Part shown: positions 21,633-42,935 of the stretch, piece after piece
Position numbering within the stretch: position 1 is the stretch's first letter
How the letters are laid out: every line of letters begins with the position of its first letter
Assembly: GCA_021405325.1 (NCBI GenBank)
Contig: QWII01000048.1
Coordinates: 33,476-97,475 of the forward strand
From: Caldilinea sp. CFX5
GTDB taxonomy: Bacteria; Chloroflexota; Anaerolineae; Caldilineales; Caldilineaceae
Reading direction: 5' to 3'
DNA: 64,000 nt
Notes under the pieces: generated by a model
The model's input: only the letters and a program-made list of their open reading frames with translations
What the model was told of the DNA's origin: nothing
Database searches by the model: none
Made by a program: the position numbers and the translations under genes

Positions 21633-22112
21633 ATGACACCAAGTAGCAAATATCAGCAACTCTATGAACATCTGCGCCGCCAGGGTGTAGACGAAGTCTC
21701 AATGGGCATTAGTGAAATTGAACAGGTGATCGGAACACGGTTGCCCCCTACGGCCCGCACCCAGCGCGCCTGGTGGAGCAATCGGCGCAAAGGGGCCGTC
21801 CAGGCCAGCGCCTGGGTTTTGGCTGGCTATCACACCACCGAAATCAATCTGGCAGAAGAACGCATCACCTTCCGCAAACCGGGTCGCGTCTACAATGTGC
21901 AACGCGAGGGCGATATTGTCCTGTGGGACGCCGATCTGGTCAAAGCGCTACGCCATTTCATGGGGCTGACCCAATCCGAGTTTGCCCGTGAACTAGGTGT
22001 ACGCCAACCGACCGTCAGCGAATGGGAGACGGGCGCCTACGGGCCGCGCCGTTCCAGTTCCAAGCTGCTGACCCTGGTGGCGGAGCGCGCCGGTTTTACC
22101 TACGACCAATAA
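21633..22112 (+). CDS. DUF7662 protein with C-terminal helix-turn-helix
   Basis: 159 residues in two parts. Residues 1-85 match the DUF7662 pattern (KYQQLYEHLRRQG, ISEIEQVIGTRLPPTAR, RAWWSN, SAWVLAGYHTTEINLAEERITFRK). Residues about 105-150 are an XRE-like helix-turn-helix (ALRHFMGLTQSEFARELGV then RQPTVSEWETG). This combination suggests a DNA-binding regulator whose DUF7662 part senses an unknown signal or partner. It ends just before a perfect intrinsic terminator and has its own promoter, so it is a single-gene unit. Confidence 0.8.
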   Translation: MTPSSKYQQLYEHLRRQGVDEVSMGISEIEQVIGTRLPPTARTQRAWWSNRRKGAVQASAWVLAGYHTTEINLAEERITFRKPGRVYNVQREGDIVLWDADLVKALRHFMGLTQSEFARELGVRQPTVSEWETGAYGPRRSSSKLLTLVAERAGFTYDQ

Positions 22113-22147
22113 GTACGATCAGTAAGCTATTCGTAACCTCTGCTGAT

Positions 22148-22178
22148 GCCAGCCGGGCTTTTTGCGGCTGGCTTTTTT
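22148..22178 (+). terminator. Intrinsic terminator
   Basis: GCCAGCCG (22148-22155) pairs with CGGCTGGC (22165-22172), followed at once by T6 (22173-22178). It closes the DUF7662/HTH gene. Confidence 0.93.
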
Positions 22179-22189
22179 CGTTTTGCCCC

Positions 22190-22218
22190 TTGACAATCTA
22201 CCGTCATCCGTGTATGAT
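22190..22218 (+). promoter_or_regulatory. Strong sigma-70-type promoter for structured leader RNA
   Basis: TTGACA (22190-22195), exactly 17 bp, TATGAT (22213-22218), right after a terminator. Initiation near 22223 would begin with the 5' arm of the RNA at 22223-22386. Confidence 0.82.
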
Positions 22219-22222
22219 ACAT

Positions 22223-22386
22223 GCGCTTACGTATAGGTTGACCCATAAACAGTAGTTCGCAATTCGCTTGAGCGGACAAATCCGGTTTCTGGTAGAAACC
22301 AGGTTTGTGGTTGCGGCCTACTGCTCATTATCGGTTATTCCATACGGAAGCGTATGAGCATGGCTTCAACCACTCGTTGTAAGCGC
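22223..22386 (+). ncRNA. Candidate multibranched structured RNA of unknown class
   Basis: The RNA closes on itself: GCGCTTAC (22223-22230) with GTAAGCGC (22379-22386), then GGTTGA (22236-22241) with TCAACC (22366-22371). Inside, CAGTAG plus CGCAA (22250-22262) pair with TTGCG plus CTACTG (22311-22323). They enclose a CGC/GCG hairpin (22265-22274) and a CAAA...GGTTTC/GAAACC...TTTG hairpin (22277-22307). A further hairpin CATACG-gaag-CGTATG (22341-22356) completes the junction and competes with TGCTCAT/ATGAGCA (22322-22328, 22354-22360). No T-tract follows, so it is more likely the leader of the small ORF at 22445 than a free RNA. Confidence 0.68.
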
Positions 22387-22444
22387 GCTGCCTCATACTG
22401 CCTTCATCCATCACTCATGATCAGCAGAACAAGGAAGGAAACCC

Positions 22445-22636
22445 ATGAACACTGGCGATATGAACGAACTGATCCGCATGTGGGAGCATGTCGAGTTAAC
22501 GGTTGACCAAGCCATCGGTCAACTCATGCTCCACATCCAGGAGCTTACCCAACGGCTCAACACCCTGGAGCGCCGCCTGGAACTCCCCAACCGCCCCAGC
22601 CAATTGCCGGACTCAGGACGGCCTGGCTTATTGTGA
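22445..22636 (+). CDS. Small coiled-coil protein, unknown
   Basis: 63 residues with a good ribosome-binding site (AAGGAAGG) before ATG 22445. Residues about 5-47 are strongly amphipathic with regular hydrophobic spacing (LIRMWEHVELTVDQAIGQL, then IQELTQRLNTLERRLEL), predicting a coiled coil. The tail is proline-rich. I do not recognise the family. It is the first reading frame after the structured RNA and probably its regulated product. Confidence 0.62.
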   Translation: MNTGDMNELIRMWEHVELTVDQAIGQLMLHIQELTQRLNTLERRLELPNRPSQLPDSGRPGLL

Positions 22637-22643
22637 TGGCGTA

Positions 22644-22700
22644 GGTGACAGGCACAGCTTACCATCGTTGCACTCATCAAGCCTGTCTGTGGCTGTCACC
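22644..22700. repeat. Intergenic hairpin after small coiled-coil gene
   Basis: GGTGACAGGCACAG (22644-22657) pairs with CTGTGGCTGTCACC (22687-22700), one mismatch, with a 29-base loop. Confidence 0.7.
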
Positions 22701-35755: not shown

Positions 35756-35840
35756 GCTCGTCTGGTTTACTCGCCCTCGGCGACAAGGTAGCCAAGTGAG
35801 GCTGCCTTCCTCTACGGAGGATAGTCGAGGGTGTTTTATT
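35756..35840 (+). ncRNA. Candidate small structured RNA with terminator-like end
   Basis: CCCTCG (35774-35779) pairs with CGAGGG (35826-35831), which is followed by TGTTTTATT. The stem encloses two hairpins: GGTAGCC/GGCTGCC (35787-35793, 35800-35806) and CCTC-tacg-GAGG (35809-35820). This gives a compact three-way junction of about 85 nt. It lies after the ATPase stop and before the antisense DUF3800 gene. It may be an independent RNA or an elaborate terminator for the transport operon. Confidence 0.55.
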
Positions 35841-42852: not shown

Positions 42853-42935
42853 AGGAGTTACGCAGTTGGACAAGACCTGTCAGGTTTGCGAAACCTGACA
42901 GGTCTCTGGTAGCGCCCGTCAACTGCGTAACTCCT
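42853..42935. repeat. Nested double hairpin between MFS and DMFase-like genes
   Basis: Outer arms AGGAGTTACGCAGTTG (42853-42868) and CAACTGCGTAACTCCT (42920-42935) are perfect. An inner perfect hairpin AGACCTGTCAGGTTT/AAACCTGACAGGTCT occupies 42873-42905. The flanks (42805-42850) are AT-rich repeats of the AATTATTAATTGATAA type. Confidence 0.9.

What the first reader, a model, noticed from the sequence alone, without database searches (positions are those of the whole stretch)
22223..22386. Strongly promoted multibranched RNA of unknown class ahead of a small coiled-coil gene
A near-perfect promoter (22190-22218) directly follows a terminator. It starts an RNA whose first and last bases pair (8 bp then 6 bp) and which contains a long internal helix, two or three hairpins and a competing alternative stem (TGCTCAT/ATGAGCA versus CATACG/CGTATG). 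The first reading frame after it encodes a 63-residue coiled-coil protein. This is the layout of a structured cis-regulatory RNA or a new ncRNA class.
Basis: partly seen in the sequence, partly recalled or inferred. Interest (0 to 1): 0.78.

Follow-up and report, generated by a model that had tools for sequence, protein, structure and literature searches.

The report
Repressor-type promoter leader containing dispersed hairpin
The folded stretch is most likely the control region of a conserved two-gene unit (a DNA-binding regulator and a small helical protein), whose folded look comes largely from DNA-binding palindromes and a copy of a scattered hairpin repeat rather than from a new class of RNA.

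Summary
The sequence features are real: terminator, near-perfect promoter, a 164-nt fold better than shuffles, a conserved 63-aa gene downstream. The proposed new RNA class is not supported. (1) The stretch is the promoter and leader of a two-gene unit (XRE/HTH gene, promoter, leader, small helical gene); the small gene matches in 44 of 396 genomes of a Chloroflexota class. (2) Operator-like palindromes lie at fixed places in these promoters. Their type goes with the HTH recognition-helix residue in 22 of 22 classifiable loci (kinship uncorrected). The "alternative stem" CATACG/CGTATG is such a palindrome, and the closing stem's 5' arm is another. (3) The long central helix (22250-22323) is a copy of a dispersed palindromic repeat common in related genomes. 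(4) No homologue of the whole fold was found in 46 linked loci. What remains is a moderately significant fold of the rest of the leader (z -3.2 to -4.1), untestable because no DNA of close relatives was reachable. Best reading: an XRE-controlled promoter with a repeat in its leader.

The parts
21633..22112 (+). XRE-type regulator gene, 159 aa: N-terminal DUF7662 plus HTH; recognition helix LGVRQPTVSEWE
   Evidence: Pfam DUF7662 54.9 bits and HTH_3 30.7 bits; HTH gene next to the small gene in 40 of 46 loci including the window; helix read
22148..22180 (+). intrinsic terminator-like hairpin and T run after the regulator gene
   Evidence: 8-bp inverted repeat with 9-nt loop (I5) followed by TTTTTT
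22190..22218 (+). sigma-70-type promoter TTGACA-17-TATGAT
   Evidence: 11 of 12; 43 of 47 loci including the window score at least 10.5 of 12.5 in a best-of-420-nt scan
22197..22214 (.). O1, weak operator-like palindrome in the promoter spacer (TCTACCGtcatCCGTGTA)
   Evidence: coordinates; 4 of 7 arm pairs, position -28 as in relatives
22219..22236 (.). O2, operator-like palindrome across the start of the transcript (ACATGCGcttaCGTATAG); its core is the 5' arm of the closing stem
   Evidence: 4 of 7 arm pairs, at -6; other type-B loci have a site at -4 or -5
22250..22323 (+). copy of a dispersed palindromic (REP-like) repeat: the long central helix plus side hairpin
   Evidence: R1 hits in other places; core pattern counts; R2 counts; related copies
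22340..22357 (.).
   Evidence: 6 of 7 arm pairs; 43 of 3000 shuffles have as good a site; only exact TACGNNNNCGTAT in 64 kb
22379..22386 (+). GTAAGCGC, 3' arm of the closing stem; inverted copy of the O2 core
   Evidence: I6; marginal against shuffles, p = 0.035
22445..22636 (+). 63-aa small protein gene (two predicted helices, 3-14 and 20-46)
   Evidence: family of 32 hits; wider family matched in 44 of 396 class genomes; structure model pLDDT 75.6

Best explanation
22190-22444 is the operator-promoter-leader of a conserved two-gene unit. The upstream XRE/HTH protein (21633-22112) most likely binds two or three palindromic sites (O1 in the -35/-10 spacer, O2 at the start site, O3 in the leader) and represses, or switches, a strong promoter that drives the 63-aa helical-hairpin gene. 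A REP-like dispersed hairpin (22250-22323) sits in the leader between O2 and O3, probably by insertion. The striking RNA fold is then largely a by-product of operator palindromes plus the repeat. Shown: the layout, the site positions, membership of the central helix in a dispersed repeat of related genomes, and the conserved protein. Inferred: binding, repression, any looping between sites, and insertion of the repeat.
For: HTH gene next to the small gene in 40 of 46 loci including the window, 36 upstream on the same strand and 4 divergent. The small protein matches at E <= 0.001 in 44 of 396 class genomes, 19 of 56 and 7 of 46 of two orders; the match of G988, counted in the first two, is not of the family (L060). 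24 of 45 linked loci (window and L025 left out) hold a palindrome with 5 or more of 7 arm pairs and CGnnnnCG, 1.4 expected. Two geometries: O1 at -27/-28 with O2 at +31 to +46, or O1 at -27 with O2 at -4/-5; the window is the second. Site type follows the recognition-helix residue: Q with ACACG-type 9 of 9, P or S with TRCG/CGnAT-type 13 of 13, Fisher p 2e-6. O3 is the only exact TACGNNNNCGTAT in 64 kb and O2 fits with one mismatch. The repeat core RGTTTCTNNNAGAAACY occurs 69 times in 17 of 55 genomes against 3 for the reversed control; model R2 matches in 37 of 56 genomes, up to 87 in one.
Against: With the repeat cut out, the leader still folds better than shuffles (90-nt domain z -4.11; whole leader z -3.20). 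The inverted O2 copy that closes the fold is in RNA-pairing orientation (p = 0.035). O1 and O2 of the window have only 4 of 7 arm pairs, and sites of that quality are common in shuffles (670 of 3000 shuffles reach the three seen). One-mismatch copies of the O3 pattern in the window are no more than chance overall (7 found, 6.8 expected). The site classes were set after seeing the sequences and kinship is uncorrected; 28 of 50 rows had no helix found (17) or neither site type (11, all with Q); by eye, O1 of the window, L029 and L065 carries a CGTGT half although their helices have P or S. L054-L057 and L059 have long leaders that also fold into closed domains. R2 also picks some hairpins of other sequence (L113). 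The repeat could not be counted in the window's own genome; its core is single in the 64 kb. No binding or transcript data.
Confidence: 0.72

Rival explanations
1. A real structured cis-regulatory leader RNA, specific to this lineage, that controls translation or stability of the 63-aa mRNA (for instance by closing the 5' end), with the repeat as one of its arms.
For: z -5.55; the rest without the repeat still z -4.11 and -3.20; first 8 nt paired with probability 0.78 against 0.48 in shuffles, 0 of 30 shuffles as high; closed long leaders in L054-L057 and L059.
Against: No homologue of the fold in 46 linked loci; 33 of 47 leaders are only 26-93 nt long; the central arm is a dispersed repeat; only 1 of 55 pairs in the four L054-L057 leaders has a double change, a set too alike to test it; inverted O2 copies are not general in type B (Fisher 0.59 over 18 loci).
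Confidence: 0.2
2. An independent small RNA gene (about 165-220 nt) transcribed from the strong promoter.
For: Strong promoter right after a terminator; in 7 of 14 type-A relatives a terminator-like hairpin lies within the leader, 0.7 expected; the scans also list a terminator-like site at 22288-22303 inside the window's repeat hairpin.
Against: No terminator-like site listed near 22386; ribosome-site-like AAGGAAGG and the conserved ORF follow; no homologue as RNA.
Confidence: 0.05
3. The pair is a toxin-antitoxin or defence-associated module rather than a plain regulator pair (not exclusive of the best explanation).
For: Small two-gene unit with an XRE gene, patchy distribution and several matches in some genomes; XRE/DUF397 pairs were proposed as such (PMC6262351, abstract).
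Against: A terminator-like stem and a separate promoter lie between the two genes; the small protein has no match in PADLOC or PHROGs, NCBIfam or above cut-off in Pfam; the HTH protein matches generic HTH models there; XRE/DUF397 Scr1/Scr2 did not behave as one (PMC6262351, abstract).
Confidence: 0.12

Closest known systems
XRE-DUF397 regulator pairs of Streptomyces (Scr1/Scr2)
   Same: XRE regulator gene next to a gene for a small partner protein (PMC6262351, abstract read)
   Different: Small protein here is a predicted helical hairpin with no Pfam family, with its own promoter and palindromic sites, in Chloroflexota. Homology of the small proteins was not tested
REP palindromic repeats (GTAG-tagged and others)
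   Same: 20-40 bp palindromes in high copy; GTAG repeats are reported for Chloroflexi (PMC3733652, start of abstract and one passage seen)
   Different: The core here is a 33-nt hairpin with a 3-nt loop, some copies with an outer CAGTAG...CTACTG stem; no link to a REP transposase was tested
Autoregulated XRE/cI-type operator regions
   Same: Palindromic sites overlapping -35/-10 and the start site (recalled from general knowledge)
   Different: A further site lies in the transcribed leader, at +115 in the window

Membership tests
Structured cis-regulatory RNA / riboswitch-like class | match to a known RNA family | tested here: not met
   no Rfam match at gathering threshold here; at E up to 10 in 22100-22700, three sub-threshold matches, none overlapping 22223-22386
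Structured cis-regulatory RNA / riboswitch-like class | homologues with conserved pairing and compensatory changes | tested here: inconclusive
Structured cis-regulatory RNA / riboswitch-like class | fold better than shuffled sequence | tested here: met
   z -5.55; whole leader -4.08; overlapping stretch 11th of 319
REP-like dispersed palindromic repeat (22250-22323) | palindromic core of 20-40 bp | tested here: met
   33-nt hairpin, 13 of 15 arm positions complementary, 3-nt loop (I2)
REP-like dispersed palindromic repeat (22250-22323) | many copies per genome | tested here: met
   in related genomes: 69 core matches in 17 of 55, R2 up to 87 per genome; in the window's own genome not testable
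REP-like dispersed palindromic repeat (22250-22323) | associated RAYT transposase | not tested
   no search made
XRE-controlled operator-promoter | HTH gene adjacent | tested here: met
   40 of 46 loci
XRE-controlled operator-promoter | palindromic sites in the promoter that go with the recognition helix | tested here: met
   22 of 22 classifiable loci agree, 28 of 50 rows not classifiable; classes set after the fact, kinship not corrected
XRE-controlled operator-promoter | binding and regulation | not testable with these tools
   needs the bench
Type II toxin-antitoxin | toxin activity of the small protein | not testable with these tools
   no family match

The most novel reading that the evidence does not exclude
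Long leaders of this unit have repeatedly and independently evolved closed, multibranched RNA domains (window, L054-L057, L059), and the regulator's palindrome O3, which as RNA is a hairpin, is read both as DNA and as RNA by the same HTH protein, so that the leader is a second layer of control.
Probability: 0.07. Interest if true: 0.75.

Novelty: new variant of a known kind. Interest (0 to 1): 0.4.

Why it matters
It shows that a single-genome fold with a good energy score can be assembled from DNA-level features (operator palindromes and a dispersed repeat). It also turns up a regulator and small-protein unit spread through a class of Chloroflexota, with no Pfam or NCBIfam family for the small protein, and with a simple, testable protein-DNA code.

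Tried and rejected
Rejected: a known RNA (Rfam; window; 11 relatives). tRNA or tmRNA. Similar DNA in the phage and plasmid collections (no match) and a relative of the protein in viral contigs (none confirmed). A general inverted O2 copy in type-B leaders (of 18 only window, L020 and L024 below p 0.05). A solved relative of the small protein by sequence (best E 0.08) or fold (none at E <= 0.001). A PADLOC match for the small protein. Paper searches; no listed paper described this unit by title or abstract, a statement limited to those listings.

Led nowhere: search of the window's own genome (none held); order and class of G012 (one genome, no match); CoaBC-based placement (one search used wrong-strand translations for most rows and is superseded). 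One search used a faulty pattern for the recognition helix and is superseded.

Rows dropped: L002 (same locus as L001), L003, L019, L060 and L062 (weak hits judged not of the family); also L018 (close copy of L017). L025 was left out of the palindrome and pairing counts (no convincing promoter). L064-L067 came later and are not. A2 uses 21 of the 31 rows of A1 plus three distant members. The pattern saw 55, that saw 56 genomes of the same order.

Full report
Observation. The stretch reads as described. A terminator-like stem at 22148-22172 with a T run is followed by TTGACA-N17-TATGAT at 22190-22218 (11 of 12). The 164 nt from 22223 fold at -62.6 kcal/mol with z -5.55, 0 of 200 (z -4.80, 1 of 500). 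The whole leader has z -4.08; in a tiling of 319 stretches of 220 nt the one from 22201 (z -4.28) ranks 11th. No Rfam family matches it.

The gene downstream. The 63-aa ORF belongs to a real family (32 hits including itself; alignment A1). A profile widened with three distant members (A2) matches at E <= 0.001 in 44 of 396 genomes of one Chloroflexota class (its name is not told, Anaerolineae is my guess), and in 19 of 56 and 7 of 46 genomes of two orders. At least one of these, G988, counted, is not of the family. One hit protein bears the source name Caldilineaceae bacterium MAG. The narrower A1 had found 2 of 400 across the phylum, one of them weak, and 4 of 301 in another order, one of them weak. 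The model shows two helices, 3-14 and 20-46, pLDDT 75.6, with no significant match by fold or sequence.

The unit. In 40 of 46 loci including the window an HTH gene lies next to the small gene, 36 upstream on the same strand and 4 divergent; in the 14 largest gene clusters listed there, downstream genes are shared only by sets of up to five loci. Promoters score at least 10.5 of 12.5 in 43 of 47 loci (best site in 420 nt, so somewhat favoured). In the spacer and near the start site or in the leader lie palindromes of the form CGnnnnCG with paired arms: 24 of 45 linked loci have one with at least 5 of 7 arm pairs, 1.4 expected. Type A has sites at -27/-28 and +31 to +46; type B has sites at -27 and -4/-5. 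The window is type B: O1 22197-22214 and O2 22219-22236, both with 4 of 7 arm pairs, plus O3 22340-22357 with 6 of 7. Site type and recognition helix go together: RQQ (one DQQ) with ACACG-type in 9 of 9, RQP or RQS with TRCG/CGnAT-type in 13 of 13 classifiable loci (Fisher p 2e-6). The other 28 of 50 rows had no helix found by my pattern (17) or neither site type (11, all with Q; by eye 8 of these have a CGTGT half in the spacer). The classes were set after seeing the sequences, kinship was not corrected, and O1 of the window, L029 and L065 carries a CGTGT half despite P or S, so this is support, not proof. The window has RQP, and O2 and O3 are of the matching type. O3 is the only exact TACGNNNNCGTAT in 64 kb, though one-mismatch copies are at chance level (7 found, 6.8 expected); 43 of 3000 shuffles of the region hold as good a palindrome as O3.

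The central helix. A covariance model of the window RNA alone (R1) finds no homologue in 46 linked loci. In 396 class genomes (strict filters) 20 have a match at E up to 0.1 per genome; the best, 1.5e-5 (about 0.006 over the set), is L068, an intergenic place without the small gene. The shared part is mainly 22250-22323: 46 of 74 positions are the same in the window, L068 and L070. Its core RGTTTCTNNNAGAAACY occurs 69 times in 17 of 55 genomes of an order, against 3 for the reversed control. A model of the three copies (R2) matches in 37 of 56 genomes, up to 87 times in one (at most 88 candidates scored, two best hits are model members, palindromes can count on both strands, and some hits such as L113 have other sequence). 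In 49 linked loci only L043 and L058 have an R2 match. Copies read by eye are mostly 33-nt hairpins with 3-nt loops, several with the outer ...CTACTG end. So the long helix is a REP-like dispersed repeat. Its insertion here is inferred; in the window's 64 kb the core is single, and the own genome is not held.

What remains. Without the repeat the closed domain still folds with z -4.11 (1 of 500; -3.92) and the whole leader with z -3.20. The 3' arm of the closing stem is an inverted O2 copy with p = 0.035; of 18 type-B loci only L020 and L024 also show the like, and the combined test is not significant (0.59; 0.12 for 11 non-redundant loci). Long leaders of L054-L057 and L059 fold into closed domains of their own, but L054-L057 are too alike to test pairing (1 of 55 pairs with a double change). 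Pairing of the first 8 nt is only modestly raised over all loci (11 long leaders 0.68 against 0.47 shuffled; 34 short 0.56 against 0.42). I therefore keep a lineage-specific RNA at 0.2.

Mechanism. Most likely the XRE protein binds O1, O2 and O3 and holds down a strong promoter for the small helical protein, which may in turn act with the regulator, as in the analogous XRE-DUF397 pair, where Scr1 needs Scr2 (PMC6262351, abstract). Binding, repression and partnership are inferred. In 7 of 14 type-A leaders a terminator-like hairpin lies after the promoter (0.7 expected; other leaders 4 of 25, 1.4 expected), so premature termination may add a layer there. In the window the only such site in the leader is inside the repeat hairpin (22288-22303).

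Novelty. Not a new RNA class on this evidence. The small protein has no NCBIfam, PADLOC or PHROGs match and none above cut-off in Pfam, and the unit was not met in the listings of five paper searches. I rate it a new variant of a known kind, interest 0.4.

Noticed in passing
window 35771-35838 (+): Match to Rfam RF02968 DUF3800-IX RNA, 48.5 bits against a gathering score of 36.8.
   Followed up: no
window 42873-42905: Perfect 33-nt hairpin AGAC...GTCT (15-bp arms, 3-nt loop), the same geometry as the dispersed repeat, nested in a larger inverted repeat.
   Followed up: partly
window about 32844, 34090, 41123, 45361, 53580, 55670, 62513: Several long near-perfect inverted repeats in one 64-kb window; nature unknown.
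   Followed up: no
L021, L022, L030, L031, L036, L045, L047 leaders: Terminator-like hairpin with T run right after the promoter; these loci have two operator-like sites.
   Followed up: partly
L054-L057 leaders: Conserved leader of about 200 nt closed by a long 5'-3' stem; by eye, ACGGCCGT recurs there and in L050 and L051 (not counted).
   Followed up: partly
G802, G908, G857: 11, 8 and 7 matches of the small protein family in one genome, many as partial matches in longer frames.
   Followed up: no
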